Assembly (NCBI GenBank): GCA_001692895.1
Contig: KV748181.1
Coordinates: 1,741,640-1,805,639 of the forward strand
Length of the DNA: 64,000 nucleotides
DNA from: Cenococcum geophilum 1.58
Lineage: Eukaryota; Ascomycota; Dothideomycetes; Gloniales; Gloniaceae
Direction: 5' to 3'
The notes below the pieces were generated by a model, which saw only the letters and a list, made by a program, of their open reading frames with translations, ran no database searches and was not told the origin of the DNA. This document shows positions 37,238 to 61,846 of the stretch, in pieces (within the stretch, counting starts at the first letter, position 1; every line of letters begins with the position of its first letter). A program made the translations under genes and the position numbers.

Positions 37238-37411
37238 TGTTTATACTAACTTAATAGTATAGGCGAGTCGTATCCAGGGGCACGAAATACGTATAGTATT
37301 ATATACTTATTTGGATAGTAGTGACTGTCGATTCTATTAAGGTAGACTACGTGGTCTATATACTAACGCACCTCCCCCTAATTAGTTAGTGCTTCAGGAG
37401 TGCACCAAACG
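37238..37411 (-). repeat. 5' LTR of Copia, left part
   Basis: First 174 bases of the right-hand LTR, from TGTTTATACTAAC to CACCAAACG, where the DNA transposon inserted. It resumes at 43368. Confidence 0.9.
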
Positions 37412-37441
37412 GTGCGTATAGGTCGGTCGGACCACGCTAAA
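37412..37441. repeat. Left terminal inverted repeat of the DNA transposon
   Basis: GTGCGTATAGGTCGGTCGG and onward to CCACGCTAAA. Pairs imperfectly with 43329-43358, the best-conserved block being CCACGCTAAA. Confidence 0.8.
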
Positions 37442-37561
37442 ATGTCGGCCCGATAGGCGAAACCTCCGCCTACCACACTAAATTTGACTTTCCCTGTCAA
37501 ACTTTGACCTTACCTTCCATCACTAATTTATTAAATCCATTTAAAACCGATTTAAAATACG

Positions 37562-38696
37562 ATGTCTAGCACATTGAAGAGCTGTGTAAGCTATCTATAA
37601 CCCGTTCTAAACGTATTCTAACAGTTTAGGCCGCCTATAAAGCCTACCTAAAAATGGAAAGGCTTCCTAAAGGCGTTAATGCTTTCGTTGTGGTAAGTAG
37701 TTTTAAATATATTTAGAACACGTTGCTAATGTGATACTAGCGTAGTAATAAGGTGGATTTGACCATGGGGGAGGTTTTCTGTTGGTATAATGTCTCGCCT
37801 AATCTAGAGAATCCGGTACTGTGTGGTGTAAGTGGATAAATATATTGGGTTTGTAATATATTGCTAATATATTCGTAACGCGTTTAGAAGAAGGTTAGAG
37901 ATTACGGCGCCCTTAGAAACTATATAAAGAAGCATGGCCTTAGAACCAGGAACATTGGAAAAAAAGGGGCTCCTTCTATTAAGAAGTAGGAAGAAGTAAT
38001 GGGTATATGTTCTAAACGTGTTCTTAACCTATTTATAACTAGTTACTAACCTATTACAGCCTTCTATTCCGCTATTATAGCTATATATAATCAGAACGTG
38101 TTAGGAACTGCTTCTAAATATAATCCTGCTAGTCTAGGCCGCTCTACTACTACCCAACCCCCCTATACCCCCACCCCGGCTCCCCCTAGCCGCCCTTCTA
38201 GGACTACTGCCCTATAATTAATAGCTCCCATTTAAGAGAAGGTTATGCCCATTAGATTTAAGAGTAGGCCTTAAAAAGGTAATATAAGATATTCTTAACG
38301 TGTTTATAACATGTTCTAATTAAGTTCCTAGTATAACTTTCCAAGAATGGTTACTCTGCTTAAGGAATTGGGTGCTAAGGTTCTATATACTAAGTGTTTA
38401 GACACGACTTCTATAGGTAAGTTAATTTGGAACCCGTTTTAAACCGGTTAAAAATATATTCTGAATTTATTATAGCCTGCTTGTTTAAGGGTTATCTTAA
38501 TTAGAGCTACTTTATTAATAATAGGTTGGATAATACTGAGGCTCCTACTACTCCGGCTTCTGCTACTCCGGCTCCTACTAAGACTTTTAAAAAGCGTTTA
38601 AAGAAATCTAGTTTAAAAGGTTTAAAGGCTGTAAAGAGAAATGTTACTAAACCTGCTGGACTTACGGAGGAGGATATTACGGCGGATCTGTTTTAA
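37562..38696 (+). pseudogene. Transposon gene A: basic protein of unknown function, many introns
   Basis: Coding starts ATG TCT AGC (MSSTLKSC). Well-supported introns are 37586-37629, 37693-37740, 37828-37887, 38003-38059 and 38417-38475, each GT-AG. At least two more are likely near 38080-38130 and 38279-38345. Exons 2-4 join in frame: 21 codons (AAYKAYLKMERLPKGVNAF...), 29 codons, then 38 codons plus one base (KKVRDYGALRNY...). A Pro/Thr-rich segment follows (TTTQPPYTPTPAPPSRPSR). The C-terminal exon is Lys-rich and ends SLKGLKAVKRNVTK...ITADLF before TAA at 38694-38696. In-frame TAG/TAA codons sit where Gln is expected (RIP). I recognise no domain; a basic DNA-binding partner of the transposase is a guess. 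The gene points toward gene B. Confidence 0.65.
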
Positions 38697-39860
38697 TAGA
38701 TGACCTGGAATCTAATTTATAATATATTTGTAACACGTTACGAATTAAATCTTATAGATGGAGTTTGGACTTGAATTTTGATAGGGTTCTATACCACTTT
38801 AGAACGTGTTTATAATACGTTAGGTAGCGAAAATAAAAGTCATTAGTTAAATTATAATATTTATTAAAATTTACTAACTTTAGCTCTTTTTAATAACTCC
38901 CTTTATATACTTTATAATTCTAATAATTTAATTATAAACTAATTATTATTTAAATTTTAATAAAATAAGAGTTTTAATTTTTAAAAATAGTATAAATATA
39001 TAGTAAAAAAAGCCTATTAAATTAAATTATTTTATAATAAATATAATTTTAAATAAAAATTATATATTTAATAAAAATTTAAAGTATATTTACTTTAAGC
39101 AATTATAATAGTATTTTTTTTAAGTATTTATTTAAATATAAAAAATTATTAAACCTTTAAATAATATATATATATATAAATAAAATATAAAATTAGTTAA
39201 TATAAAACTTATTTTATTTAATATATTTTTAATTAAGTATTAGCTAATAGTTTTTATAAGTAACTATATTTATATATATAGTAGTAGTTCTTTAATTAAT
39301 GTCTAATACGGATCCTATCTAGGCCTACGCAGACTACTCCATTATAGGGGGAAAACTTGTATATTTATAGGAAGAAAACCCTGCAGTTTGGGGGAGGAAA
39401 AACCCTATAAGCTACCTTAGTTGGATAATATTTATATATATAGATAAGGCTTAAATATATAGATAGTAAGTAGTAAAATAATACATTTTTTTTAAATAGA
39501 ATAAAGATAAATGTTTAGATTTCTTATAGCCTTTTCTCCTATTTTTTACTATTTAATAGTTATTAGTACCTTAGTATTTTATTAAGTAACTATAAACCCC
39601 TAATTAAAAGATTTATAAATTATTAAAATATAATTACTAATATATATTAAGCTGCTTAAAAAGGATTTATATATATAGAACTATAGTGCTATAGTCTAGA
39701 GACTGTATATATAGTATTATATATAGTATTAGACGTTATATAATAAAACAATTATTAAAAAAGGCCTAAATGTAAGTATATCTTAATAGGAACTTAATAA
39801 GAACATATTTAGAATATATTTAGAACATATTTAGAACGTATTTTATATTTAGTATACTCG
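38697..39860. other. AT-rich spacer between the convergent transposon genes, with LINE-like tail
   Basis: 38830-39290 is almost pure A/T. At 39296-39420 a segment beginning GTCTAATACGGATCC and including GCAGACTACT resembles 52924-52980 (GTCTGATGCGGTCCC and GCAGACTACT), suggesting a small LINE-derived insertion. A run of RIPed AACNNGTT boxes lies at about 39790-39845, probably one more gene-B intron. Confidence 0.5.
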
Positions 39861-42800
39861 TTATTGCATATAAGCCTTTATTACCTCTAATTAAATTCTT
39901 TTTTCTATATTCTTTAGCTCCCTTACCTCTAATTTAATCTCTATTTTACGAAGTTTAAGTCTCTAACGTCTTTCTTAAATATCCTGGTTATTGCTTAAGG
40001 CCTGACGCTTTAGTAACTGCGAGAGACTAGTACTAATACGTTTAGAACGTGTTAGTAACTAGTTACGTATACATTAGAATATAAAGGCGGCTTTATAATT
40101 CCTTAAATGCTATAGAGGATAACCTAGAACGCAATATAGATCTAGATCTTGGCCCCCTTAAACGCCGAGCAGAACTAGATTGTGACCTTACTATACCTAA
40201 TAATAATGCCTGAAATAAAATATCATCCTCGTTATTATTAGCAGCGGCCTACTCCAATTCTTCTTAAAGTTATTAATGTTTTCGTTCTAAACGTGTTAGG
40301 AACCGGTTTAGAAGAGGATCGCAATAAATATATACTCTCTCTGCCTATATAGTTTGTATATCGGGCCAATATTAATGTGTTTCTTTATATATATTATATT
40401 CCGAACTGGTTCCTAGCAAAATACTAATTAACATCCCGTTGATCTAGTTTTTGTGCGCTAAATATAATATAAGCATATTATAAACGGGTTAGGAACGTAT
40501 TAATACCTTATAACAGTAGGAAGAAGAAACTGCCGTATACCAAATGTATATAATTTATTTGCTATTTATTCTACTGCATTTATATAGTATCTTAATCTAT
40601 TAAATAGCTCGTAATTAATTAGAGAGCAGTGCTTATTTAAGCCTAAAGCGATAACTGGGTGTCTCTTATGTCTCGCCCAGTTGGCAACTAATCGAGATTT
40701 GTGTGCTATGCTATTAACACCTTCTAAACGAATTATAAACGGGTTTAGAATAACTTACTAATTAGTAAATTATAGAGTTCTTTGTATTCTGACTGGCTCT
40801 TACATATAAGAAGAGCTTTTATCCATTTATGTACAGAGTAGGCCGTTTCATAGTTACCCGCGGCTCTTGAGATACTTTATAGGAAGTATACTTGGTAGAA
40901 AACTAGTGTTTTCCTAAGATGCCACGTCTAATCGCGCCTGTGAGGATTAATATGCTGTAGATACCGCCTAAACCCTTTTATAATACGTTAGGAAGGCGTT
41001 CTAATTGCGTTCTAGGTATCCTACTAGCCATTTGCTTGCTATTTATATCGGATATAATAGCTTTAAAGCCTTTCTTACTACTATAAATGTGTTTCTAACA
41101 AATCTATTTCTAAAGACATTTAGAAAGCAATTAAAAGACTCGCTTAAAGCATAACTAGTAAGTACGCCTTGTTTCCGTATTAGTAATAACGCGTATAAGC
41201 GTAAATACTATTAGAATATATTAGTATCGCGTTCTAAACGGGTTTATATTATATTCTAATACTTTTACTATACTCTTTAAGCCAAACAGCAAATATAATC
41301 TCGTTTATATTTCTTTTAATAATACGTTTAAAAGACATATTAACTTCAAATGTGTTTTAGGCTAGGAAGATCTTAGCTTGCTCTTATAGAAAGCAGATTA
41401 TTATAAACCCGTTTTGATTATTGTAAATCTGTTAGATATAAGCCTATAACGTGTTAGCAAGCTAATTAGAACGTGTTCGTAACGTATTTATTACCATTTC
41501 GGGATTTTAATGCTTTTAATTAAACTTATATACTACCCCTACTAGTCCTTTTCCTTTTGGGTATAGAGTAAGCTTCTCTTTTTAAATTATTCTAGTAATA
41601 CGATCCATAGTAGCAAAGCTTGCGTAGATCTGTGCTAAAGAAGCCTTTCTATACTGTATATAAAACTGTTTAAGGGCAGGACTTCAAAGAAACTTTCCTA
41701 TAAAGACGTTAGGTATTTATTCGCAATTGGTTTAGAACGTGTTTACTAAGAGTAAGATCTAGATTACGCATTCAACAAACCAACTTAATTACCTCATTTA
41801 ATATCTCTAGAGGCGGCTTATTTGGGGGGAGTGGTGTATAACTATGTACCTTATGCAAGGTAAAATGAATATAAGAAGTCTCTTCTAAGTCGTCTGGAAC
41901 AAAAATATAAAAAGTAACCTCGCAGTCCTAATGGATAAGTTTCCCTAGTCCCTAGGGGTGGTTAATTCCTATAAATACGTTATAAACATATTACGAACGT
42001 AACCGGAATACGTTCTAAGCAGGTTATATTTTTTTCTTACTATAGTCTACCCTTCTATACAGATTTGATTTAATAACTCCGCATTTCTCCGTTATATCGG
42101 CACCTATATTGCCTAGTTAAATAAGAGATATTAAATACGCAGTATCGTATTTCTCATTTACTAGTAATACTTTTCGGAAGTACTCTAAATGTATTTCTAT
42201 AGTAGCCTGCGTATAGGTAAGAAATGAGTGCCGAACGTTAGCAATATCCTAATGTAATTAGTTCTAAACGTAATCTGGTTAGGTTCTAAACATATTTAGG
42301 TAAGATAATTACATACAGAGTATCTTTATTGCTTAATTGTTAGTATATAAGCCTCTGTTTAAGAGCTACATACATTTCCAGCTTAAAATTGTCTTTGAGC
42401 TGCTAAAAATAAGCTTATATATATTAACTTGAGTACTAAATATATTTAGAACCAGTTCCGTACCTATTTATATTACGTTTGCGAATATCCAGGTCGCTTC
42501 TATCTAGGGCCGCCCGCTCTCTCTATATTAGACCCCACGTCTCTTTAGTAACTATAGTGTGGCTTAAAGATTATAACCAATTCTAAAGATATTCGTAATG
42601 TTTTACTCCTAAACAACGCATTTTATATTTTTTACCTCTTATATTTAAAAGAGCGGATATTATAGGCTTAGGAGTATATACTTGTCTAGTTCTATATTAG
42701 ATCTAAACGCGTTATAAACTAGTTATAAATATAGTTAGGGCATAATTTAGATTTTTATTAACTTACCTGTATGGCTTTTTATGCATCTATGCCTCTTAAG

Positions 42801-43184
42801 TTAATACGGTAAGTATAACCTTTATATAGCGTCTATAGGTACTCTAGAAGACTTAAACAATCCTCAATTATAAGTGTAGTAAGAGGATTAGTAGATGCCT
42901 TAGTAAGAAATATAATATAAGGAACTTCGGGCTAAATATGTTTAGAACTGGATTAGAACGCGTTTAGAACGTATTAAAAACTTACCTTAATCTAATCTTA
43001 CGGCTGTGTTCGACTCTCTTCTAGCATATAATCTTCTAACCCAAGGATACTGTCTTCTAAATCAATTTCAAACTCATTTTTATTATTACTAGAGAAATCC
43101 AGTGGCTGGTAATTATTAGATAGATCTGTTTAAATTAGAATACATTCCAAACACGTTACAAACACGTTATAACTAGTTACCCAT
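39861..43184 (-). pseudogene. Transposon gene B: multi-intron transposase-like protein
   Basis: Starts ATG G at 43184-43181, split by intron 43126-43180, giving MDLSNNYQPLDF and an acidic N-terminus. Further clear introns are 42932-42985 and about 42686-42766, with roughly ten more downstream. Exons read well apart from RIP stops. Segments in order: PEVPYIIFLTK; GLGKLIHxDCEVTFYIFVPD; HSYTPLPPNKPP; NTFEVNMSFKRI; KGFKAIISDINSKQM; RYLQHINPH; and VIALGLNKHCSLINYELFN before a VExIANKL segment. These resemble, from memory, a family of fungal multi-exon transposase-like proteins with TFEVDMSFKR and AIVxDMDxxQ motifs; I cannot give a superfamily name. A probable RIP stop lies at 40093, after which a charged coiled-coil-like tail continues to the TAA at 39861, which may itself be RIP-derived. 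Confidence 0.7.
43126..43180 (-). other. Intron 1 of transposon gene B, four AACNNGTT boxes
   Basis: 55-base GT-AG intron. On the minus strand it reads AACTAGTT, AT, AACGTGTT, TGT, AACGTGTT, TGG, AATGTATT: four boxes at 10-11-bp steps, the last decayed. It is the clearest array in the element. Confidence 0.8.
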
Positions 43185-43328
43185 GATGGTTGGTTCTGTT
43201 TTAGAGCCAAGAGGTAAGTTGTGTAGTGGGATAAGCGATTTACGCTCGGTTGACCACGTAATCTTATATTTTCAGCTGAGGCTGCCCCGTGCAGGGATTG
43301 TGCATTAGCGCTTATAGTAGACCCACCC

Positions 43329-43358
43329 TTTAGCGTGGCCTAACCGACTTGTAACCAC
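43329..43358. repeat. Right terminal inverted repeat of the DNA transposon
   Basis: Reverse complement starts GTGGTTACAAGTCGG and includes CCACGCTAAA, matching 37412-37441 imperfectly. Confidence 0.8.
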
Positions 43359-43367
43359 CACCAAACG

Positions 43368-43464
43368 CGTAAGTAGGTAGTTGGTGCACCGAACGCGTAA
43401 ACGCGTACCCGGCGTACCGAACGCGTAAGCACGCGGTTGGTACGAAAGGTGCTGTAATTATACA
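43368..43464 (-). repeat. 5' LTR of Copia, right part
   Basis: Last 97 bases of the LTR, ending GTAATTATACA, followed by the ATACC duplication and the resumed Gypsy G2 sequence. Confidence 0.9.
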
Positions 43465-45424: not shown

Positions 45425-46602
45425 TAATACCCAGCCTATTAACAAGTCCACCGTAGTTCCTACTACAAGACTTTGTTACATTAGGCTCGTTATAAGGCTA
45501 TACCCGTAATATCGCACGTAACGGTATACTACTACCCTAAGCTATATATTTAGTAGAGCCTATAGCACGTAATACCCTTACAAGAATATAGAGTTGCTAA
45601 AGCTGCATTCTACGTTTAAAGATATCACGTGGGGGAAGAAAGAGGCATTAGCTTCGTATCTACTAGGGGAGCCTTGTTAAGTGTATCGCGCTATTTACCA
45701 AATTTGGCGCTAGCTGCATGCGGCAGCTGGTTCGACGATCCTCATTTTCCAGAAAAAACCGCTACTTGCGCTGACGTGTCTTCTAATCAGGGGTGACTTG
45801 TATGGCTTTGATTATTCGCGACATTGAACTACGCTGGACTCTACACAGATACATGTACGTACACCATTTAGCAGCAAGAAAAAAGTGCCCGGTTATCGAG
45901 AGGTAGCCGATCGTCGTCGCATTTCTCTTGCGTGTATGAAGTGTTGCTCTGGATAAAGCCCCCTCAGGCTTATCGGTGATTACCTTTATGCCGGGAGTGC
46001 GGAGAACCAGTCAACAAAGCCGGGAGAGCATCGGCTATATGCAACGGACTGCAATCTGATGCATGTGTGATGTGGAGGTCATCGGGAACTAATTACAAGG
46101 ATCCCGTGGCCCAGGCTGCCGCCATATCAGCGCCCCATTTCTGAGGAGTTGTTTGCCGAGACACGTATCAGGTCCTCCAAAAGCCATAGCGCCCAAGCAG
46201 CGCCTATCAGGGACCACAATAGGCAGATTGGGCGAACCCGGTCAGCTGCAGCCTGGCTTGCTACAGTGAGTGGCCCGAAAAAGCACTGCCTGAAGAGGCG
46301 GAAGAAGGCGTTACATCCAACCGGCGAGAAATGCGCAAGAAAAACACGCACTCAGCCGCGGCAAGGAGGATTCGGTTACAGCCTCGTGTCATCGGGAAGG
46401 CAAAGTGCGGATTCAAGAGGCAGCTAGTGACATCAGGCCAACACACCTTTCCAGACTGAGTGGGCGGCCTCAATGGAGCCTTGTCGAATAATGAGTGCTG
46501 CGTTAGGGCGTGGGCGGCCCTTGCCTCAGCTGATGCAACTGGGCGGCCCTCGCCTCAGCTTCTCCACCTCCTGATTCCGTTGTGGAAATCAAAAAGGCTG
46601 TG
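45425..46602. other. Intergenic, no supported gene
   Basis: Normal composition. Short overlapping open frames at 46127-46473 on both strands share no motif and are likely chance. A 20-bp direct repeat GGGCGGCCCTYGCCTCAGCT occurs at 46512-46531 and 46541-46560. Confidence 0.5.
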
Positions 46603-46875
46603 AACGTAGGTAACGGGGTTTTGACCAAAATTGGTCAAGTTGGCCCCCAATGTCGCTAGTCAACTCGGGTTCCTCATCTGAGGACTCTTCAACATATTAT
46701 TGTCCTCCTCCCTTCCGGGGTCCTCTGGTAGAGCAGCTTCTTCTGCCACCTTCCTGGCGGTCTTTTAAACGCCTGGAGAGGCAGTATACTTTTTAGACTA
46801 TGCTAGCTATAAAAAGAAAGCTGTCTACTAGCACGGTCATAACCACGGAGCGGTCAAAACCCCGTTACCTACGTT
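46603..46875. mobile_element. MITE-like element with 24-bp perfect inverted repeats
   Basis: Left arm 46603-46626 (starts AACGTAGGTAACGGGG, ends TTTTGACC) is the exact reverse complement of 46852-46875. Length 273 bp, no coding. I could not define a target duplication. Confidence 0.75.
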
Positions 46876-47547
46876 ATGTATATCCAAGGGCGTCCATTAC
46901 CCTAAATCGGGGTTGGAAAAGTTAAGAGTTTTGTTCTGGAGTGAGTTCACGCACGTTGGCTGAGATATGCACAAGTACACGCGCGCGCGCAGAGCATACT
47001 AACACCTTTTGATTAGGAAACTCTAATTCATTATTTATCCAGGCAACCCAAAGTAATTTCATTAGATTCGAAGCAACAATTCGAAGGAGAGAAACAATTC
47101 AAAGCGGAAATTCAGAGGAGCAATTCAACCCAACAATTCAAATCTGCAGTCAAAGCCACACCAGTTCAGTCACACCTCAAATCCACAACCTCAAACAACA
47201 ACTACGTGTAACTCGTAACCATCAACTCATAACAATAACAACCAATTCCAATTCCAATTCCAAAAAAAGCCATCCACTGTAACAACCCACAGCAATGTTA
47301 CATACGAGAAGAGGGAACACAATGCTTGAGACGCCTTCGCCTGGGCAATAGGGTCTTGTCTATTGCTATGTCACCCATTCTAAGATGCGGTACATAATGG
47401 AAGATGCTGCAGTACGACCGAGCAAACCGCTAAGTCCACGAACGGTCCACATCATCACTGTACAAAAATGGAATGGAAAATACACTGCCGAGCAGCTCGT
47501 CATGTTACGATGTCTGTGGTTCTTGCCTCTGCTTCAACTTGTCAGAG
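46876..47547. other. Intergenic; CA/AATTCA-rich stretch
   Basis: A short CG/AC dinucleotide run lies at about 46976-46991. 47060-47280 is rich in CAATTCA and CAACA units, like a fungal leader or promoter tract on the plus strand, but no gene begins to its right in that direction. The rest is the 3' flank of the gene at 47548. Confidence 0.5.
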
Positions 47548-48693
47548 CTAAAGATATCGGGGGGGCTTCTTGGCAAAGAAGAGCACGCCGGCAGCGAGAG
47601 CGAGGGCACCAGCTACAACATAGAACACGATGTCAGTTCGGCACTTGGCGTCTAGTTCAGCGGATTCCAGAGGCCACTTTTCGACGTCCTGACTGTGCGG
47701 ATCCTCGTCCGTCAGCGCGACATTGCTGTGGGACTGCCCAGTCTTGGTGCTACTCTTGAGGTATTGAACGTTTGATTCAGCCCAGAAGGGACCAAGGACG
47801 GAGGTAGGAGAGGAGGAACCCTCGGTTTCCTCCGAAATATTTTCTGGGATGTTTCCATGCATGTCTACATGCTTGGAGTGGCCTAGCACTTGGCCCACGA
47901 TGGGCATAGTGTGGGCGCGGGAAGGACCTTCACGAGAAGTGTCAGGACAAGAAGTTCTGAGTCATACTTTTGATATGACGCGAAGTGGGCAGCATGTGGG
48001 AAGGCAAAAGGACATGTACAGGTGGGCCACGTACCTTCGTGCTCGAAGGGCTTGTCTCTGCTGTGATTGCCCAAGAGTCCGGCCAGGGTGTGGGGGCAGA
48101 AGTGGCTGCCTTCAGCTTGGACGAGTTCTTTATACAGCTCGACCGTTCTCGCGGCCAGCGTGTTCCCAGAATACTTGTCTGAGTGGATTCGGTGTGCTGC
48201 CTTCCTGGCGCTGAGAACCAGCTCGCTATCACTCTCCTTGATTTGAGCGAGTTCGCCCGGCGGGAAGAACTCTAAGATAAGAAGTTAGCTGTGCTTATAG
48301 GCTGAAAGCATCGTCAGTATTTACTGGAGCCGATCCGGTGGATGGGCTCTCGAATGGTGTCTTTATTAACATCTAAAGGACTGCATGTCAGCCAGGCTTT
48401 TCTGCGACCGGTCTCGATGACTTCTTTTAGGGGTCTCACTTACCTAGGTTGTGAAGGTGTTTGCACTTTGTGCCGCCTGGGCAACCGCTGTGCTCGCCCT
48501 CCCCTATGCTGGACACGGGCGTGGTCGAATATCGCTGGAGAGTCGGTTTCATCTTCAGAATGATGACGACGAAGATGACGAATACTACGATGAAGGAACA
48601 ATAGAATACCTGTAGATGAGATGAAAGACGGCGGGGCTGTGTGGATGACCAACAGCTAAGAAAGAGAATGGGAACGAATGTCGCACGCAACAA
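47548..48693 (-). CDS. Conserved-looking membrane protein of unknown function, three exons
   Basis: Exons 48444-48693, 48271-48035 and 47882-47548 join in frame to 273 codons plus stop. The introns are GTAAGTGAG...CTTAG and GTACGTGG...GCTAG. Residues about 29-46 (VFYCSFIVVFVIFVVIIL) form a first membrane segment. A conserved-looking stretch with GCPGGTKCKHLHNL follows, then a helix-rich region (PPGELAQIKESDSELVLSAR) and HFCPHTLAGLLGNHSRDKPF. The Ser/Thr-rich linker is followed by a C-terminal membrane segment (FYVVAGALALAAGVLFF) and a short KKPPRYL tail. No named domain recognised. The Cys/His pairs could bind metal, but this is only an inference. The start is uncertain: CAG precedes the first membrane segment, so an upstream intron and different first exon are possible. 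Confidence 0.7.
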
Positions 48694-49095
48694 TAGGGAA
48701 TCAACCGACGGCGGCGTGGTGAAGAGAAGTGGAGGTGTGCACTGGACGAAGGACAGTGGTGATGAAGAAGGGATTGGGGTGGGAGGAGACCAGCGTCCAC
48801 AGGCTCAGTAGCGGTGGCAAACCCAAACGGGCACAGAAGACGAATCGTCCCGTTGGCCGACGCGGGCTGCGAGCCTGGCAGCCTGGGTGCACCGGCAGCC
48901 AGTCGACTGACAGACATCCACCCGGCCCGGCCAATCGTGCCCGTCGCCCGCCCTCAGCTCGCGTGCTCATCGCTCTCGCTGGCTCCGAGCTGGCGCTGGC
49001 TCCACTCCGATTCGTCCTTCGGCCGCGAGCGAAGCCCAAACCGCTCCGCGTAGACCCTCCGCTCATCTCATCCAACCGTTTCATACAGTTTCAAA
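48694..49095. other. Upstream region of the membrane-protein gene
   Basis: GC-rich. Overlapping open frames on both strands (for example 48729-49160 plus and 48701-49084 minus) have Arg/Pro/Ser-rich chance-like composition and no motif. Probably promoter and leader. Confidence 0.5.
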
Positions 49096-49478
49096 GGGGG
49101 GGTTTCGATAAACTGACGGAAGGTAAGGCAACTCGAATCGAGGTGATCTTCGCATACTAGCAGTATATAGTTAGGGACCTTCCGTCAGATTCGATTCTTG
49201 GTAAATATCAAAAGTTTTGATGAATATTTTCATCAGAACTTTAAGCCAACCCCCTATTTTGTTAATAACGGCCAGCGACTCCAAATTTCGCACAGTTAAT
49301 CCTTGCCACTATGTCTTTTGATCCCGCGCGCCAAGTTGATCAAACCATCGAGTTGGTGAGGAGCAAGGATTGCTCTCTATCGAAATCCCTACTTGACCAC
49401 TTGCCGGAAGGTCGCGCTAAATGTATATGTAAGCACTAAAAATTAGCCTTACCTTCCGTCAGTTCATCGAAACCCCCC
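49096..49478. mobile_element. MITE-like element with ~32-bp inverted repeats
   Basis: Left arm begins GGGGGTTTCGATAAACTGAC and continues through GGAAGGTAAGGC to about 49129. The right arm, 49446-49478, is its reverse complement with one mismatch in the paired part. An extra internal CCTTCCGTCAG copy lies near 49180. No coding. Target duplication unclear because of the G-runs at the ends. Confidence 0.75.
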
Positions 49479-50654
49479 TAATGGAAAGGTAGGTGCGGGC
49501 CGAGAGGAAGACTGGCTTGGCAGGATTTGACAGTTGCAAGTTCAGACGAAGATTAGGAACCCCCAGTGAGCGAAAACGTCACCGAGAGCTCCGGCACCCT
49601 TCCTTCATTCACGCCCAGTTCAATAGTCCAGCGGAACGAGCTCGTGACGGCAGCCCCTTCTTGCTTGATTTGCTGACGTAGTTTTGCCATTTTGTTTCGG
49701 GCCCGTTGCATCCCACGTTAATCCCGCGCTCTGCCTGCACCCTTGCCAGCTGGGTGGTCCGGCTGAGACTAGCTTTTGGCGCCGGAAAACCCAGTACGAG
49801 CAAGAGAAACGGCGGCGGGAAGAGTTGCTCTGCGTTTCGCTGAATCGACTTGTAGCAGGAAGCGCCTAAGTCCAGCTGCTCGTGCCGGGCGGGACTCCCA
49901 CGCGATGCGACATCCCCCAAGGGCGGCGGCAGCGCAGAGAGAGGCTGTGTAAGAAATAGGCTGGCGTAGTGGTGTGCGGAGGTAGGTCATGCTCGGTGCA
50001 ATTTTACTCATCTCCACCTTGCTGCCCAACTAGCAAGGAACCGTGGTCATAGGTGGGCGACGGAGCGCGGAAACTAGAAGACCGCAGAAAGCGAAAGAGA
50101 CGGCCGAAGAGGTAGGTTTCGCTGAGCACACCCTCTCGCGAGGCATCGGGGCAGGGTCCATGCTCAGGCGCGGGCGTCCAATGACGTGCGGCACCGGTAG
50201 TGCACCAGCAGAAGGCTGGGCCCTTGCTCTGACGCGTCCCGGCTGCAGCCACGGTCCGTAGTGTGTTCAGCCTGCTCAGAAGTCAAATACATTTTCGACC
50301 CTTTTTGAATGGCTGGTTTTGCGGTGCAGTTCGATTTGAGTGTCCGCCAGCAAGACGCAGCTCCGCTTGATCCGCCTCTCCGCCCCGCGCCGTCCAACCA
50401 GCCAGCGGGACCTAACAAGAAGAACTAGCGGAGGACTGCCGCAGTCTATTGCCACCCGGGGCCCCTGCTCCGCGGTTCCCGCCTGGTGCCACCAGCCGTG
50501 TCTGTCACCCTGTCGCCCTCCCTCCCTCTCACACTCCCTCGTTTCTCCGCTCCTTGGTCTTCTCTCTGCCTTGCTTCCTTAGTCTGCCTTGCGTGTAGAA
50601 TTATTATATATTTTGACCGAGAAGTCCTACATCTTTGCGTATTGGGTTTGCTCT
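49479..50654. other. Probable promoter and leader of the zinc-finger gene
   Basis: GC-rich, with several short open frames on both strands that look like chance. 50500-50600 is strongly CT-rich (CCCTCCCTCTCAC type), typical just upstream of fungal start sites. No conserved coding seen. Confidence 0.5.
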
Positions 50655-51848
50655 ATGTATTCTCAGACTCCAGTGCTCTCGCCTGCATATCCTTACACAG
50701 AGCTAGATTCCAGGGCCCTACCTTGGATTCCTGAGCCCTTTGGTGTCTCGTCCCGAACAGCGACAGCACCACCGTCAAGCTCATCCGAATATGGCTCGAG
50801 CTCGTACTATGCAGACTCTGATACTATCGTCGCGCCCAGTCCCTTCTTGGATCAGAGCTGGGATATCATACCACTGTCTATAAGCTCAGCGTCCAGCCTT
50901 TTCACCCAAGATAAAGACACGTCGTTGCACTTTATGCATGATGCCGACTTGACCTCGCCCTCCGGAGCCTGGCTAAAAGACTCGATAGCAAGTCTCTCAT
51001 CGTCAACCACATTCTCCTATGAAGAATCGGAGGTAGAGAGTTGGAGACAATTGCCTCCGCTGTCGGATGCATTATTAGACGCCTCTCAGGGCAAATCGCG
51101 CGTTTGCGATCGGTGTGGTAAATGCTTCGGCTGGCCGAGTCAGTTGAGGTACGTCTGTCGCATAGCCCTCTTGAGGAAACACGAACAATCACTTACCGCA
51201 TGCAGAAAACATCAAAAGATCCATGACCAAAGCAATCGCGCGCACCACTGTACACAATGCGACATGAGCTTTTTGTACCGGAAGGACCTCAAACGCCATC
51301 AGAACACGAAGCATCGACTTTCAGGGTCTCCCTCGGAGATCTTCAGGTGTCGGGTCGCAGGCTGTCAGCTCAAGAAAGAGTTTACGCGTCGGGACAAGCG
51401 AAGGGAGCACGAGGAGAAGCAACACTCCTCTCAGTCGAGTTCGCAAGATTCCTGTGACCTCTCGGAGGACATTATGAACTACAGCGACGCGAACGCAAGC
51501 CCGCGCTCACCTTGCTCTAGCCCTCGGAGTATGATAGTTGAACCTACTTCCTATCTGAGGACGACAACTCCGACAATGCAGCAGAACTCGAATGAAAAAC
51601 CATTTGCGTGTCCATTCAGAGGCAAAGGCTGCGATAGGACCGATAGCTTCAATAGCTACGTCGACCTAGCACGACACGGGAGGAGCGTTCATAATTCTCT
51701 GCTGCCTGCAGATTCACATGGCTTCTACAAGTGCGCCTACCAAGGCTGTAAAAATTCGTCAAAACTATATCCTCGCAAAGATAACTTCAAGCGCCACGTC
51801 GCGGCCATGCACCCAGACGTGGAGACAGACGGTCTGGTCGAGAGGTAA
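50655..51848 (+). CDS. C2H2 zinc-finger protein, probable transcription factor
   Basis: The first ATG of the frame is 50655 (MYSQTPVLSPAYPY). Exons 50655-51148 and 51206-51848 give 378 residues. The 57-base intron (GTACGT...GCAG) is in frame and free of stops, but its removal restores a perfect finger, CDRC-x12-HQKIH, so splicing is real. The N-terminal ~145 residues are Ser/Pro/Thr-rich and acidic. Fingers start near residues 151, 180 (CTQC...HQNTKH), 213 (CRVAGC...HEEKQH), 298 (CPFRGKGC...HGRSVH) and 339 (CAYQGC...HVAAMH). The last three have longer loops. The role is inferred: DNA-binding regulator in the nucleus; no target can be read from the sequence. Confidence 0.85.
   Translation: MYSQTPVLSPAYPYTELDSRALPWIPEPFGVSSRTATAPPSSSSEYGSSSYYADSDTIVAPSPFLDQSWDIIPLSISSASSLFTQDKDTSLHFMHDADLTSPSGAWLKDSIASLSSSTTFSYEESEVESWRQLPPLSDALLDASQGKSRVCDRCGKCFGWPSQLRYVCRIALLRKHEQSLTACRKHQKIHDQSNRAHHCTQCDMSFLYRKDLKRHQNTKHRLSGSPSEIFRCRVAGCQLKKEFTRRDKRREHEEKQHSSQSSSQDSCDLSEDIMNYSDANASPRSPCSSPRSMIVEPTSYLRTTTPTMQQNSNEKPFACPFRGKGCDRTDSFNSYVDLARHGRSVHNSLLPADSHGFYKCAYQGCKNSSKLYPRKDNFKRHVAAMHPDVETDGLVER
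51149..51205 (+). other. In-frame 57-base intron inside the first zinc finger
   Basis: GTACGTCTG...CATGCAG, length divisible by three, no stop. Retention would insert 19 residues between the second Cys and first His of finger 1 and destroy the finger. Confidence 0.8.
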
Positions 51849-52329
51849 AGTTGCTTCCCTATTCAATACTCTCTACGCATTTGCTGAACAGCGAAGGTCA
51901 AAATGTGTCCCCAACAACGCGAAGGTCAAGAGTCTGCCCCTCACAGCATTTGATACGTTCCAGAGCCTCGATGAAAGCGGCCCCGTTCTCCCCTCGTTCG
52001 GCATCTCTACGCAACCGAGCCGCCTTTACCTCTGAAATTTGAGGAAGAGTGAGCTACGTAGCAGGTTTACCTGGCTGTTTTGTTCTTGAGTGTAATTCTT
52101 GCATTTGTAGACGGTTGCATAGATAGCGGTTGAATCCAATGTTGAGAGGTTGTGCCAAATCCAATCTTTGGAGGTGGCCAAAATACGGCCCTAAGATAAC
52201 CTTAATCGAATCTTCATATTTCATACCACTATCCGTGGCCTTCGTAGCTGCGCCTTGACCATCCACCAGAAGGGTGGGTGGTGGACACCCTAATCGCCAG
52301 GACACGTCAATTGCCAGGATTAAAGGAAT
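51849..52329. other. 3' flank of zinc-finger gene, no gene supported
   Basis: The minus-strand open frame at 52054-52305 (83 codons) has no recognised motif. An imperfect inverted repeat (CCACCAGAAGGGTGGGTGGTGG) lies at about 52260-52285. Confidence 0.45.
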
Positions 52330-52904
52330 TAATTATATAACACTACCACATTAATAATTATAAGTCTTCCAACTACTCACGCGCTTCATCCTATTCACTA
52401 TATCTATCCCTAGAATTATTAGAAGTCTTAGGCTCTGGTATTAGTGTTTTAGCCTTTTTGCGCTTATTTGCGACCTTTTTATTATCTATCTTCCTCTTTT
52501 TAGCTAGTGAGTGGCCTTTAACTACTATAATTACCTTAAACTTCTATATAACCTTTCTAGTACTAGCCTTCTGCTTTTAGCGTCGCTTATTCTTAACCTT
52601 AGTCTCTTTTAGCTGCCATTTAAAAGATCTAAATACTTAAAGCTAAATCTCTACGCCGTATATATATTTCTATATAGCCTTATTTAGGTCCTTATTCTCC
52701 TACTCCCACCAGTTTTACCTAATATACTAAGCTAAGTCGCCTGCCTGCCTAATCGCCTTTAGTATAGCAATATTAATATTCGTTAATATTGGGTCTTTCC
52801 TTAGTGTAGCCTTATGTAGTAGAGATAGCTTATTAAGTACCTTCTTTAAATCAAATAGGTAAAGGCAAGTCTCTATAAAAGCCGCTTTAATTATTGCCTT
52901 CTTA
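52330..52904 (-). pseudogene. pogo/Fot1-like transposase C-terminus, RIPed fragment
   Basis: Minus-strand translation runs from AFIETCLYLFDLKKVLNKLS, similar to the segment usually reading GFxxTGLxPFDPxxVLxKL in pogo transposases, to a Lys/Arg-rich tail. Stops are RIP-type. Part of the same AT-rich remnant continues at 53869-54040 after an inserted LINE fragment. No terminal repeats found. Confidence 0.6.
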
Positions 52905-53854
52905 TTATTCTTGATTCTTGATTAACGTCTGATGCGGTCCCAATTAAGGTCCATGCAGACTACTGCCGTGATGTAGGTACAAAAAACCTCTAAGGGAGAC
53001 GTGGGTGGTAATACAAAGTGTACCCCCTCTAGGTAGCACGCCCGTACTACATCAACGGGAGGAAAAATACCGTTAGGTCGCTGCTCTGAGACTCCTGTAA
53101 GGAGTGTCCTGATTGCCTATCTTGCCCTGTCTGCCATTCGTACCATGCTTCCTTTTGAATTTGTAAGTACCATGAGATTAATATCATTTTGCCCTTGCTC
53201 CTATTCGAATGCCCTATGTATACGTATACGCCTATAGCCCTCCTACTTGCAGCATGATTTCTACCCCAAAGGAACAGCGGGACGAATGTAGATCTAGATC
53301 TAGGTGCCTTGTCCTAGGGCCCCAACCTAGGTCCCCTATGCACACCCCCAGCCAAAGGTGTAGAGGAAGACGGAATACCGCGCGGTAAGTCCAGGCTGTC
53401 GGGTAGGGTAGGGAATGAGAGGCTCATTACAGGCTTCCTAGGGCGTATGCGGTTTATTCGGTCGCCGTGTACGGCTCGTTCGGTCGCCGTATGTGGCTCG
53501 TCGGTCGCCGCGTGCGGCTCGTTCGGTCGTCAGGCTATGTAGGTGTTCGTATAGGAGGAAGGGGGACGCCGGATATAGATGCCGTGGTACGAGTAGTATT
53601 TTCGATAGACAGATGTGATTGATGACCGAGATTGAGACGTGGTAGTCGTTTTTGAAGCTTCCGTTGGGGCTCACCTCCCAGTGAAAAATTCTCCACGCCA
53701 CCACCACATCACAACGCCGGCGCGCTGCTGTATACACGTCTCTGCGTTTGCTCTGGTAGTCTATTGGCACGATCCTGGTGGAACGCCGATAGCTGCATAC
53801 CAGGTTCTCGGGCTCCACCACGTGGAGGTGCAGAGGCCGATTTTCATGGAGCCC
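52905..53854 (-). mobile_element. Truncated LINE insertion with 14-bp target duplication
   Basis: TTATTGCCTTCTTA flanks the insert at 52891-52904 and 53855-53868. The left end carries TTGATTCTTGATT repeats, which on the minus strand form a short simple-repeat tail like fungal LINE 3' ends. A minus-strand open frame (53438-53821) ends in Arg-rich repeats and may be the LINE C-terminus. Composition is normal, not RIPed. Confidence 0.6.
53452..53533. repeat. Minisatellite, ~24-bp unit
   Basis: Four imperfect copies of a unit like CGGCTCGTTCGGTCGCCGT in tandem, inside the minus-strand open frame of the LINE fragment, where they encode repeated Arg/Thr/Asp residues. Confidence 0.75.
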
Positions 53855-53868
53855 TTATTGCCTTCTTA

Positions 53869-54040
53869 AATATATGCTAATATAGTAAGCCTAATTTATA
53901 GCCTTACTGTACTAGTACTTAAAAGGCTAAAATACAACTATATTAAGCGGCTATATCTTATATATAAGATATAAAAAAAAGTAGGCTAGTAAAATCTTAT
54001 AATTAATATAGTATTACGTAAACTCTAGTATTTTATAAAA
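53869..54040 (-). other. AT-rich transposon remnant next to beta-galactosidase pseudogene
   Basis: RIPed continuation of the pogo-like remnant. It abuts the C-terminal end of the GH35 remnant and probably marks the break point that truncated that gene. Confidence 0.5.
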
Positions 54041-54880
54041 GCCGTAGCCGTTAAAAATAAGGAGTCGTCGTAAGTGCGAGCAACTTCAGGGAGCGAGTCT
54101 GCCATTCCCCGTCGCGTTAATGTTGGAAGTTCAGCCCTGCAATTTGCTACTCCAGATATCGAGGCCACAAGAAAACCATAGGCAGTTTTTTTTCTGGCAA
54201 GAAGTTTGCCATTCCATTGGATTGTCTTAACCCGCTCGCCCCCTACGTAGACTTCGACAGTTGTCTGGTTAGTATTGTCGCCTGACACTCGCATCACTCC
54301 GTTGCTGGTAGGGGCACTCCGAACGCTGTCATGACCTAAAACGAAGCTTTGCTCGTTGGGGACGACGTCCGGATTAAAAACTGTTGGCGGGGCGAAAAAC
54401 GAATAGCCCGTATCGAGGTCAAGCAAGTATATGACTAGGCCGTTGGGAAGTTGGATGAAAGTCGCTCCATCAGTCTGAGCATAAGTGTATCCGACAGTGC
54501 TGTTTGACTTGGGTTTAAAACCGGCCTCAACTTAGTACGTTTTGAATTCCCTCACGGATCCTGATTTGAAAGCAAACTCGCCCACTTGACCAATTTTGAG
54601 GTAGAAGACGATAACGGGGGCGTCGAACGTGCCATATATGGGCACTTCAGCGGATGAGTGGGGTAGCGTCTCATCCCCAAAGACATAATCCGTCACAACA
54701 AATCGGCTCTGACGGTTACTTAGTTGCATATTCGGTATCGTTATGGGCCCCGAAGTTGTGTTGACAGTTATGGAGAAATTAGTGATAGCTCTTGAGCTAG
54801 AGGTCGTATGCTCGGCTAAATAGAAGCCGGCCTTCGTGTCTAGGTTCCTCAATACCCATGTGTATATCGCAGTTGAAACG
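54025..54880 (-). pseudogene. GH35 beta-galactosidase remnant (C-terminal domains only)
   Basis: Minus-strand translation contains YTWVLRNLDTKAGFYLAEHT, SRFVVTDYVFGD, YLLDLDTGYSFFAPP, VVPNEQSFVLGHDSVRSA, VKTIQWNGKLL and LPEVARTYDDS. All are landmarks of the post-barrel domains of fungal extracellular beta-galactosidase (LacA type). One in-frame TAA (54532-54534) interrupts an otherwise continuous frame, consistent with CAA to TAA. The N-terminal TIM barrel with the catalytic Glu pair, and the signal peptide, are absent, and the C-terminal domains after YDDS are replaced by transposon sequence. It cannot be a functional enzyme. Family usual length is near 1000 residues; about 285 remain. Confidence 0.85.
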
Positions 54881-55506
54881 CAAAGTTAGTTGAATCATGG
54901 GATACTATTCTTATTAGGCAAAATGACCGAATTCCAGGTTGACGTATTTTCAGGGATGAAGCTTTTAAATGACACCGAAAGACCGAGGCTCTATTGGCTC
55001 TGCCGCTCAGGACTACCCCTCCTCAACCGATCCTCATCAGACAGGACTTTTGGAGTAGCTTCCGCGAGCTTTATAGGGAACGAAGAGGGTTGTGCCTGAA
55101 CGTGCTTCATTGGAGTGTGGGGAAACACAAGGAAGCCGCGTCTGCCAAGCCAGAGGTAAAGCCACTCCGCGTTTCCCCACTACTCCCTCCCAGACATCTC
55201 TTTGGCGTGCTATCATGTTTAAAATATTCCAATACAAATATTTACAATCTGAAATTTCCAGGCGCACTTTAGTCCCCTTTTACACTTCTCTCAGATAAGC
55301 ACGAAATTCACTCCCCCACTAGCTCCTAGGGGAAGACTATTTGCGACCATACCCACCGGACTATCCACCTTTCTTTCCTGGTCCACTTGTCAATGTGCCT
55401 CCTTTTACGCTCGAAATCCCGCTCCACTGCAGCCTACTCGGAACCAATGGCTGAATAGCCTTCAGCCAAACTGTCTCATACAGCCTACGCACATCACAAG
55501 ACTTCA
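54881..55506. other. Intergenic between GH35 remnant and GH5 gene
   Basis: Several overlapping open frames of 60-90 codons at 54890-55298 on both strands, none with motifs. No trace of the missing GH35 catalytic domain was seen here. Confidence 0.5.
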
Positions 55507-57006
55507 TTAGCAAAACCGCACTTTCGTTGAAATCGAGGTTGAGAGGAGAGCATACCCTGGCGACCCATCGCCTGCTTTACTCCCAGGCTCAAAGCTCCCA
55601 TATTGTTTGTTATTAGTGCAGCATGGGCTTGCAGTACCCCACAAGGGTCCAGCAGCCCAAGCGGTCCAGCCAATGTATTCATCATTGGCAGCCATATAGT
55701 TTATGAGATCAGCGAGGTAAGTATCGCACTAACCCATTCATCCGAACGTCGTTAGCCATGTGTTCCAATCCAGAGGGTACCAATGATGGACTTAGTACAT
55801 AGATAAAGAGATGAGACAACAGCTTACCTGCGTGTTATTATCCCCTCCGAACTCGGTGATCATGGCCTACGTATTTATCAGCGCTTTTGCAGTTCCCTTC
55901 GAATTCGCCAACCTTCACTGGACAGGTTTCTCCGTACCTTCAACCCGTACTGCTTCAGCCATCCCGTGACTCCCGCCAAATTTGCCGGGCCAGACTGATT
56001 GCATACTGAGTAACGGCCGCTAAAATCCGTATCCAGGTACTCGTGAATGTCGATGGCCGTATTATTAAGCGGATCAGAGATTTTATAAAGATAATTTCCT
56101 GATGGCTCATCTCCTTGAGAGCTCTGAAGCCAGGAATGGCCACCAGTGTAGCCATTTCCGGGCGCAATGATGAGCTGTTTAGCTCCGGCCGCGCGGATGG
56201 CAGTGATGGCAGCTTGGTTATTTTGAAGAATGAGGGAGGTTGGTATATCGTGGGGCTAGTAATAAATGGCAATTTGGTAAGCGGATGCACTTTCTTGGGG
56301 TTGAGATTCAAATTCGCACGTCCTTACCTCATTCATGAGACCGAATATAACCCTCTCATTGCCTTTGAACCGCCTAGCCAGTTCTCCCCAAAAAGCCCCA
56401 AATTGCGCAGTCGTTGCGGCTTTAGAATCCGATGTGTTTCCAATCACGCTTCCCGTCATAGGTTGCTGAGACGGGTCATTGTAGCGCATGTAGTTGTGTG
56501 GGTCGAGAATTGCGTAGGCTCCTACAATTTCACTTAATTATTTTGCCCGAACGCTCTCTCAAAACGAACCTTTAGTGATAGTGATGTAATCTATGGCATC
56601 CTTATAGTACCCAAAATGCTGGAAATTCATCAGCAACTAGAAATCTTCTCTTGATTCTATTACGCACCGTCTCATTAAATATGCTTCCAAGCCCACACCA
56701 GAGCGGGCACATCCTCTCCAGCAGAAAGGCAACTCTAAATAAATTTACCTGCCATCGATTAATATAGGCCGCCTTCAAATTGGCCCACTGAGCACTACTT
56801 ACTTTGTTTTGGTCAACATATATATCTAGAGCACTTTTATTAATAAAAGCATAATCGACGCCGAATGCCCCTGGCAGTCCAGTTCCTGGCGTTGCGGTGC
56901 TACTCCAGGCGCCGAACTCGCCCGAACTCTCCGCCACACCAGCATAGAATATTTTTGCAGACGCCACAGCCACAAGCGACAATATCAACGAGAAGGCGGA
57001 AACCAT
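55507..57006 (-). CDS. GH5 endo-beta-1,4-glucanase (cellulase), secreted, seven exons
   Basis: Exons 56803-57006, 56668-56748, 56570-56618, 56328-56521, 55938-56255, 55828-55866 and 55507-55728 join in frame to 368 residues, all introns GT-AG. Signal peptide MVSAFSLILSLVAVASA. Landmarks: FRVAFLLERM; DPHNYMRYND; VIFGLMNEPHD with proton donor Glu near residue 176; QLIIAPGNGYTGGHSW; IDIHEYLDTDFSG; MITEFGGDNNT with nucleophile Glu near 287; and YIGWTAWAAGPLWG. No cellulose-binding module. The reaction would be internal cleavage of beta-1,4-glucan outside the cell. The first intron (54 bases) is in frame without stops. The frame is undamaged despite flanking transposon debris. Confidence 0.9.
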
Positions 57007-61430: not shown

Positions 61431-61801
61431 ATCGATAAGGATAAAAGTGCCCTCTGCGGGGCTTTTTTACCCCAACTAAGCAGAATTTGGCAGAATTTGG
61501 CAGATATTGTAGATAATGCAGATATTGCAGATATTGCGGATATTGCGGATATTGCGGATATTATAGTAGAAACAGGTCCCTATATACCTCTCCCCCTGAC
61601 TATATAGTAGTTAAATACTTAAAGAAAAATTCTCTATCCCTTTTATAGTTCTTCTCTAATGCTAATTCTTTAAATACTTTGTTTTCTTAAGAGTTTTAGA
61701 ATCTATCTATATTCTCTCCTATAATACCATATAACGTCCTCCTAAAAAGACTTTTTCTAGCTTATTACTTATTACTAGAATTAAGAGAATTTTAATTACT
61801 A
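61431..61801. repeat. Repeat remnant with 9-bp tandem array
   Basis: 61484-61566 holds CAGAATTTGG twice and then about six copies of a 9-bp unit like GATATTGCG. 61580-61800 is RIPed AT-rich sequence. Probably the end of a decayed element. Similar CAGAATTTGG pieces occur in the C2 LTRs near 15137-15150. Confidence 0.55.
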
Positions 61802-61803
61802 TA

Positions 61804-61846
61804 ACCGTGCGTATTACCAAATGCACGGCCTCACCAAATGCACGGT
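61804..61846. repeat. Left inverted repeat of pogo element
   Basis: Begins ACCGTGCGTATTACC, ends AAATGCACGGT, preceded by TA (61802-61803). Confidence 0.9.

What the first reader, a model, noticed from the sequence alone, without database searches (positions are those of the whole stretch)
37586..43180. Phased AACNNGTT box arrays sit in nearly every intron of both genes of one DNA transposon
Seen: introns of the plus-strand gene (for example 37586-37629, 38003-38059, 38417-38475) and of the minus-strand gene (43126-43180, 42932-42985, 42686-42766 and about ten more) carry palindromes AACGTGTT, AACGCGTT, AACCGGTT or AACTAGTT. They are often tandem with 2-3-base spacers, so GTT and AAC half-sites recur every 10-11 bp, one helical turn. 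The exons between them do not carry such arrays. The introns are otherwise dissimilar. Inference: either one box-bearing intron seeded many (introner-like spread inside a transposon), or introns are used as a sink for transposase or regulator binding sites spread across the whole element without constraining the protein. I know of no described transposon with this design.
Basis: partly seen in the sequence, partly recalled or inferred. Interest (0 to 1): 0.9.

Follow-up and report, generated by a model that had tools for sequence, protein, structure and literature searches.

The report
Fungal transposon with binding-site-like introns
A fungal jumping gene keeps a repeating 11-base DNA motif in its introns and rarely in its coding parts, which looks like a ladder of protein-docking sites placed where splicing removes it from the message; a plant transposon is known to use a similar layout.

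Summary
The element (37412-43358, 9-bp target duplications) is a Mutator-like DNA transposon in a 177-Mb genome, probably Cenococcum geophilum. I defined 20 introns; the 14 of the transposase gene rest on P0001, a contiguous 849-aa protein, and L037, an intact gene of the same genome coding for nearly that protein. In the window 26 of 31 perfect AACNNGTT boxes lie in introns (18% of the element; 0.57 expected), 3 in exons. All 20 introns carry a box at one mismatch or fewer. The lattice period is 11 bp and is phased to the acceptor. In L037 the introns hold 12 boxes, the exons 0. Introns are evenly spaced. Splice signals, base composition and RIP do not explain this. The design is not unprecedented: Arabidopsis VANDAL21, also a MULE, carries VANC-binding motif arrays in non-coding regions including introns. 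Best reading: a lattice for an element-encoded DNA-binding protein, convergent with VANDAL/VANC. Main rival: introns born from arrays and decaying since. Binding is untested, individual boxes are not conserved against L037, and one-mismatch boxes are mildly above chance in window exons too.

The parts
37403..37411 (.). 9-bp target site duplication, left copy (CACCAAACG)
   Evidence: identical to 43359-43367. Of 11 copies with both flanks in the slice, 9 have an exact 9-bp duplication, L015 has two mismatches, L011 reads as 10 bp with one mismatch
37412..37448 (+). left terminal inverted repeat (GTGCGTATAGGTCGG...)
   Evidence: 38-nt arms, 74% complementary
37562..38696 (+). gene A, small protein with no Pfam family, RIP-damaged, 6 introns
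   Evidence: related to Cenococcum geophilum gene models P0002 and P0004 and to metagenome protein P0003
37586..37629 (+). gene A intron 1: 1 perfect box, 3 at <=1 mismatch
   Evidence: gene model P0004 skips it
37693..37740 (+). gene A intron 2: 1 perfect, 2 at <=1 mismatch
   Evidence: skipped in P0002 and P0004
37828..37887 (+). gene A intron 3: 1 perfect
   Evidence: skipped in P0002 and P0004
38003..38059 (+). gene A intron 4: 2 perfect, 4 at <=1 mismatch; least certain intron (57 nt, open but for one TAA; lies inside a larger skipped stretch in P0002 and P0004)
38284..38331 (+). gene A intron 5: 2 perfect; donor reads AT in the window copy, GTAAGA in L032 and in the subfamily B consensus
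   Evidence: P0003 skips it
38417..38475 (+). gene A intron 6: 2 perfect
   Evidence: P0003 skips it
38725..38825 (+). two perfect boxes after the gene A stop codon (38732, 38803)
39780..39850 (-). degraded 11-bp tandem array just after the gene B stop (no perfect box, 3 at one mismatch); segment 86 bp in 8 of 8 subfamily A rows, 64 bp in 6 of 7 subfamily B rows, 46 bp in 1 of 7
39861..43184 (-). gene B, MULE-type transposase, 14 introns, many in-frame TAA/TAG (RIP)
   Evidence: collinear with intact P0001 at 61% identity
43126..43180 (-). gene B intron 1: 3 perfect boxes in tandem
42932..42985 (-). gene B intron 2: 1 perfect, 4 at <=1 mismatch
42703..42766 (-). gene B intron 3: 2 perfect
42414..42463 (-). 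gene B intron 4: 1 perfect
42249..42316 (-). gene B intron 5: 0 perfect, 3 at one mismatch; exactly 22 bp shorter in L009 and L014
41969..42040 (-). gene B intron 6: 0 perfect, 4 at one mismatch
41698..41746 (-). gene B intron 7: 1 perfect, 3 at <=1 mismatch
41444..41494 (-). gene B intron 8: 2 perfect, 3 at <=1 mismatch
41208..41262 (-). gene B intron 9: 1 perfect, 2 at <=1 mismatch
40975..41024 (-). gene B intron 10: 0 perfect, 2 at one mismatch
40706..40758 (-). gene B intron 11: 1 perfect, 3 at <=1 mismatch
40458..40506 (-). gene B intron 12: 1 perfect, 2 at <=1 mismatch
40287..40335 (-). gene B intron 13: 2 perfect
40033..40072 (-). gene B intron 14: 2 perfect, 3 at <=1 mismatch; its donor is less certain (spliced model has 5 residues more than P0001 there)
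43322..43358 (-). right terminal inverted repeat
43359..43367 (.). 9-bp target site duplication, right copy (CACCAAACG)

Best explanation
Shown: a two-gene Mutator-like DNA transposon carries an 11-bp lattice of AACNNGTT palindromes in its introns, with few perfect boxes in exons, and the lattice persists in a relative at about 61% protein identity. Inferred: the lattice is a set of binding sites for a DNA-binding protein made by the element (the small gene A product, or the WRKY-like domain of the transposase). One palindrome per turn of the helix would let the protein line up on one face of the DNA. Placing the sites about every 240 bp in introns covers the element without altering either protein. 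Likely purpose: keeping the element's chromatin open against silencing in a genome that heavily mutates repeats, as VANC does for VANDAL21; coating the DNA for transposition is the alternative purpose.
For: Enrichment: 26 boxes in introns versus 0.57 expected. Period 11 bp: mean matches of 6 at offsets 11, 22 and 33 from a perfect box are 4.61, 3.81 and 3.25, against roughly 0.8-1.7 away from multiples of 11. Relative L037, introns fixed against P0001: 12 boxes in 764 bp of introns, 0 in about 2.5 kb of exons; offsets 4.37, 3.81, 3.67; 14 of 14 introns with a box at one mismatch or fewer. With donor, acceptor and branch site held fixed, 1.65 expected (maximum 5) against 26, and 1.40 (maximum 4) against 12 in L037. 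Near-specific: of the 50 listed sites (of 118) with a perfect 11-bp pair in the genome, I place 45 by coordinates in this family or its fragments. Copies differ by 22 bp, two lattice lengths, in intron 5 and in the array after the gene B stop. Even intron spacing: exon CV 0.23 against 0.94 at random. Intron interiors differ less by transversions between subfamilies A and B (10/833) than other non-coding DNA of the element (45/1262, p = 0.0005) and not detectably more than transposase exons (20/2543, p = 0.29). Layout as in VANDAL21/VANC21 (PMC5735166, passages).
Against: No binding protein is identified and no binding was measured. Between the window family and L037, box sites are no more conserved than other intron sites (165/244 versus 219/329 identical), and intron transversions (0.171) exceed those at third codon positions (0.123). 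Between subfamilies A and B box cores differ at 8/156 sites against 60/643 other intron sites, p = 0.058. Lattice match fractions (0.77 and 0.73) would also fit neutral decay from a once perfect lattice. In the window, exons too exceed every shuffle at one mismatch (29 versus 16.1), though not in L037 (19 versus 13.9, maximum 24). Non-coding DNA outside introns is hardly enriched. L038 and L042 show no perfect box between exon matches. L037 keeps boxes although no gene A match better than E 0.05 was seen in the roughly 9 kb beside it (L037 and L044, tblastn), which counts against gene A as the sole reason. Gene A introns are more conserved than exons against subfamily C (difference 0.131 versus 0.185), but not among sites involving G or C (0.431 versus 0.353), and the transversion contrast is p = 0.07.
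Confidence: 0.5

Rival explanations
1. Array-born introns: 11-bp tandem arrays were inserted or expanded in the coding sequences and are spliced out because the palindromic lattice itself supplies CTAAC branch sites and TAG acceptors on either strand. What is seen today is the decaying remnant and need not bind anything.
For: Lattice phase is tied to the acceptor: 22 of 26 window boxes end at a distance of 2-5 modulo 11 from it; by hand, 8 of 12 in L037. Evenly spaced introns recall the linker-biased insertion reported for introners (PMC9860276, passages). Match fractions 0.77 and 0.73 fit neutral decay; no site-level conservation against L037. Introner-like elements are known in Dothideomycetes (PMC4457414, passages).
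Against: Fungal introner families have copies of high identity in host genes; here no two introns are near-identical (best intron-to-intron matches 64-84% over 29-51 nt), and most listed genomic pair sites lie in this one family. Some boxes lie outside introns after the stop codons. Low transversion rate of intron interiors between subfamilies A and B.
Confidence: 0.27
2. A host protein (a transcription factor or a nucleosome-positioning factor) binds the lattice, and the element exploits it for expression or for an open chromatin state.
For: Regular 11-bp period and about 240-bp spacing of introns; boxes persist at L037, beside which no gene A was detected.
Against: Perfect pairs outside the family are few (5 of 50 listed sites) and no perfect box lies in the 20.6 kb downstream of the element, so an ordinary host regulon is unlikely.
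Confidence: 0.12
3. Splicing signals alone: the boxes are branch sites, acceptors or splicing enhancers of small fungal introns.
For: CTAAC and TAG overlap the lattice in many introns, and boxes are phased to the acceptor.
Against: 26 boxes against 1.65 expected with the splice signals held fixed; often several boxes per intron; 11 of 26 lie too near or too far from the acceptor to be the branch site by my judgement (3-4 nt, or 32 nt and more). Two host introns that I read by eye in this window (59150-59101, 58796-58740) have no perfect box; this control is small.
Confidence: 0.08
4. Artefact of AT-richness or of repeat-induced point mutation (RIP).
For: The window copy is heavily mutated (CpA depleted, TA/AT 1.46).
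Against: Dinucleotide shuffles give 0.57; L037 shows no RIP signature (TA/AT 0.89) and carries the lattice; the flanks, RIP-mutated on the left, have no 11-bp pairs.
Confidence: 0.01

Closest known systems
VANDAL21 / VANC21 and VANDAL6 / VANC6 of Arabidopsis (MULE DNA transposons with an anti-silencing protein)
   Same: A Mutator-like element with a further protein besides the transposase; short motif arrayed at high density, often in tandem, in non-coding regions including introns, weak in coding regions; repeat number differs between copies; motif highly enriched in that family and rare in other TEs (PMC5735166, passages; PMC10398659, passages).
   Different: The VANC21 motif is YAGTATTAY in one orientation; here AACNNGTT is palindromic at 11 bp. 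Here all 20 small introns carry it. Gene A was not compared with VANC; binding and anti-silencing are untested. Fungus, not plant.
Introners / introner-like elements (Dothideomycetes and others)
   Same: Many introns sharing sequence, even spacing, Dothideomycete host (PMC9860276, PMC4457414, passages).
   Different: Most listed pair sites are in one transposon family; introns share an 11-bp lattice, not near-identity over their length; some boxes lie after the stop codons.
En/Spm (CACTA) subterminal TnpA repeats (recalled, not looked up)
   Same: Short repeated binding motif of an element protein within a DNA transposon.
   Different: Those cluster near the ends; here 37412-37562 and 43185-43358 have no perfect box.
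Ascomycete MULE-like transposases P0005-P0010 (Bimuria, Aspergillus, Penicillium)
   Same: 34-39% identity over 62-97% of P0001; invariant D461 and Cys/His positions such as C271, H326 and H328 in the alignment.

Membership tests
Mutator-like (MULE) superfamily | 9-bp (8-11) target site duplication | tested here: met
   9 of 11 copies with both flanks in the slice have an exact 9-bp duplication; the 8-11 bp range is recalled
Mutator-like (MULE) superfamily | MULE-type DDE transposase domain | tested here: inconclusive
Mutator-like (MULE) superfamily | WRKY-GCM1-like zinc finger common in MULE transposases (recalled) | tested here: inconclusive
Mutator-like (MULE) superfamily | terminal inverted repeats | tested here: met
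   37412-37448 / 43322-43358, 74%; copies share the ends
VANDAL/VANC-type anti-silencing system | tandem short motif in non-coding regions including introns, poor in coding | tested here: met
   the excess is in introns, other non-coding DNA is hardly enriched
VANDAL/VANC-type anti-silencing system | motif dense in the element family and rare elsewhere | tested here: met
   118 pair sites against 12-20 expected from base composition; 45 of the 50 listed placed in the family. The built-in control (2 sites) is biased low because RIP destroys CA/TG; 68 sites were not listed
VANDAL/VANC-type anti-silencing system | element encodes a VANC protein that binds the motif | not tested
   gene A has no Pfam match; VANC itself was not fetched or compared; binding needs experiment
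VANDAL/VANC-type anti-silencing system | loss of silencing marks on the element when the protein is made | not testable with these tools
   needs experiment
Introner-like elements | near-identical introns | tested here: not met
   best matches between introns of the element are 64-84% over 29-51 nt
Introner-like elements | copies spread in host genes | tested here: inconclusive
   only the perfect 11-bp pair was searched genome-wide; 5 of 50 listed sites lie outside the family, 3 of these not inspected

The most novel reading that the evidence does not exclude
A transposon that makes its own introns out of its protein-binding array: the palindromic 11-bp lattice carries branch site and acceptor on both strands, so an array placed in either gene is a docking site in DNA and a removable intron in RNA. 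Binding-site arrays would thus have seeded an intron-rich, evenly segmented gene pair.
Probability: 0.22. Interest if true: 0.92.

Novelty: new variant of a known kind. Interest (0 to 1): 0.74.

Why it matters
It would extend to fungi, with a different motif and geometry, the strategy described for plant VANDAL elements, pointing to convergent evolution of non-coding docking arrays in MULEs. It links three open questions: how transposons resist repeat-directed mutation and silencing in fungi, why some transposon genes are intron-rich, and whether introns can arise from binding-site arrays. The intact relative gives a testable protein and a testable lattice.

Tried and rejected
Rejected: chance or AT-richness, RIP artefact, splicing signals only, near-identical introners. 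First splice drafts with a 36-nt intron 4, a 43-nt intron 5 and a 35-nt intron 11 were dropped after comparison with P0001 and agree with L037 as revised. A reading of 37586-37629 as coding was dropped because gene model P0004 skips it; this rests on annotation.

Led nowhere: Pfam and NCBIfam on the proteins gave nothing above cut-off; PDB sequence search empty; the single-sequence fold was poor (mean pLDDT 37) and Foldseek on the second model had no match at E <= 0.001; the paper search for the exact box listed 3 papers on bacteria; the listings (11 papers; 6 listed) showed no fungal case by title and abstract start, and one search found 0 papers. A larger control set of host introns (family PF00022) and a search for other MULE families (P0006) did not complete. 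Intron positions in Bimuria, Aspergillus and Penicillium could not be checked: no eukaryotic collection is offered beyond this genome. Of the 118 pair sites only 50 were listed; of these I looked at four places outside the main copies and left three sites (two on C9, one on C16) uninspected.

Rows dropped before counts: the 15-row alignment (the window plus 14 copies) left out L016, L017, L023-L025 and L028 (truncated or interrupted in the stretch fetched) and the diverged L029-L036. Subfamily counts used 8 A rows (the window included) and 7 B rows; some rows lack some introns. The gene A comparison used 5 subfamily C loci. The intron-gap test counted only gaps of at most 150 bp between exon matches.
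Full report
Setting. The window lies in a 177-Mb assembly of 162 contigs. Two of gene A's three database relatives are Cenococcum geophilum gene models, and the published genome of that fungus is 178 Mb (PMC5023957, passages); the host is therefore probably C. geophilum, a Dothideomycete (inference). Roughly the first 45 kb show a strong signature of repeat-induced point mutation: CpA depletion and high TA/AT.

The element. It runs from 37412 to 43358 between 9-bp duplications CACCAAACG. Of 11 copies with both flanks in the slice, 9 have an exact 9-bp duplication, L015 has two mismatches and L011 reads as 10 bp with one mismatch. The terminal repeats begin GTGCGTA and are 74% complementary. 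A DNA search with its left quarter gave 43 matches in the genome, a lower bound by the tool's note; I fetched 28 places and 8 further stretches. Two main subfamilies align with the window copy mostly at 92-94% (A) and 82-90% (B).

Gene models. In the protein search with P0001, 95 of the 97 matches outside contig C110 contain in-frame stops, by my count of the 109 rows. Reading stops as glutamine for search only, I had found P0001, a contiguous 849-aa protein at 61% identity and 99% coverage; its source label is 'lgn' (I take this to be the Logan assemblies, recalled). The C110 locus, L037, encodes P0001 nearly exactly: 92-100% in nine exon matches, 80-84% in three matches that run across introns, with no stop in its spliced frame and no RIP signature. 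Because P0001 is one open frame and L037 is interrupted, P0001 is most likely from spliced RNA (inference). A spliced alignment gives 14 introns of 45-68 nt, all GT-AG; the same 14 were modelled in the window copy, with the donor of intron 14 less certain. Gene A has 6 introns, supported less strongly: metagenome protein P0003 (on a 1074-bp contig) skips introns 5 and 6, gene models P0002 and P0004 skip introns 2 and 3, and P0004 intron 1; intron 4 rests on splice signals.

The boxes. In the window element 26 of 31 perfect AACNNGTT boxes are in introns, 3 in exons and 2 elsewhere; introns are expected to hold 0.57. All 20 introns hold at least one box with at most one mismatch and 17 hold a perfect one. 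At one mismatch or fewer, introns have 51 against 9.0 expected, but exons also have 29 against 16.1 (above the maximum of 26 in 300 shuffles), so the window exons are not wholly free; in L037 exons the count is 19 against 13.9 (maximum 24). The period is 11 bp, with harmonics at 22 and 33. Among the fetched loci, most family copies show an excess of pairs at 11 bp; L036, L042 and L043 show no pair at 11 bp and L038 one. The window flanks show none in 58 kb. A pattern of two perfect boxes at 11 bp occurs at 118 places in the genome, against 12-20 expected from base composition; 50 were listed and I place 45 of these by coordinates in this family or its fragments. The tool's own control (2 sites) is biased low because it contains CA and TG. 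Two of the five others lie in a different repeat (L046, L047), three were not inspected.

Persistence. In L037, introns (764 bp) hold 12 perfect boxes and exons (about 2.5 kb) none (Fisher p = 2e-8), with the same 11-22-33 signature; 14 of 14 introns have a box at one mismatch or fewer. Individual boxes have changed places on the lattice: identity at box sites (165/244) equals that at other intron sites (219/329), and intron transversions (0.171) exceed third-position ones (0.123). So the lattice, not the individual site, is what persists. Over the shorter span between subfamilies A and B, intron interiors (splice sites removed) show 10/833 transversions against 45/1262 in other non-coding DNA and 20/2543 in transposase exons, a sign of constraint; box cores alone (8/156 against 60/643, p = 0.058) do not reach significance. 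RIP makes transitions, so transversions are the fairer measure; alignment quality in the AT-rich spacer is a caveat. Copies differ by lattice multiples: the segment after the gene B stop is 86 bp in 8 of 8 A rows, 64 bp in 6 of 7 B rows and 46 bp in one, and intron 5 has lost exactly 22 bp in L009 and L014. Gaps between exon matches of seven relatives hold perfect boxes in five and not in L038 and L042.

Geometry. Boxes end 3, 14, 25 or 36 nt (give or take one or two) before the acceptor in most cases, 22 of 26 at 2-5 modulo 11; by hand the same holds for 8 of 12 in L037. The 13 internal exons of L037 have a mean of 182 nt and a CV of 0.23, against 0.94 for random placement, P = 0.001 even when exons are forced to be at least 90 nt. 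In the window, intron centres of gene B are 239 bp apart on average.

Reading. [quoted passage not shown] passages). I judge that this fungal MULE works in a similar way: an element-encoded protein lines up on an 11-bp lattice in non-coding DNA. Shown: lattice, location, near-specificity, persistence, 22-bp length changes. Inferred: protein binding, its identity and its purpose. The rival that the lattice is the fossil of array-born introns remains open, and both may be true in sequence: arrays as docking sites that became introns because the motif carries splice signals. My literature searches (listings only) did not show a fungal case; the library lacks most subscription journals.

Noticed in passing
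L037 (G000:C110:136300-143300), gene at about 2968-6277: A transposase gene without stops in a genome whose other copies are mutated; right terminal repeat remnant at 6410-6441, no left-end or gene A match seen in L037 (gene A also not in L044). It may be a solitary or domesticated gene.
   Followed up: partly
window 39282-39428: About 147 bp present in the window copy and absent from other aligned copies at that point, flanked by similar ATATTTATATATATA stretches; looks like a small nested insertion.
   Followed up: no
window 38880-39780: Intergenic spacer with 17% G+C between the two genes.
   Followed up: no
window 43359-43445: The right flank carries repeated ACCGAACGCGTA / GGTTGGTGCAC-like motifs around the insertion site; possibly another repeat's end used as target.
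   Followed up: no
window 1-45000 versus 46000-64000: Border near 45-46 kb between RIP-mutated DNA (TA/AT about 1.5-2.0) and mostly normal DNA (0.7-0.9, with 52001-54000 and 62001-64000 at about 1.3).
   Followed up: partly
L046 1486-1504 and L047 1530-1575: A different repeat, present twice on contig C12, also carries two perfect boxes at 11 bp (AACGCGTTTTTAAC(G/A)TGTT).
   Followed up: partly
subfamily A and B consensus: Many A/B differences read as CG to TA double changes, as if CpG to TpG was followed by RIP of the new TpG; not counted.
   Followed up: no
L045 1485-1514: A short family fragment has three boxes in tandem where intron 3 of the window copy has two, another sign of unit gain or loss.
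   Followed up: no
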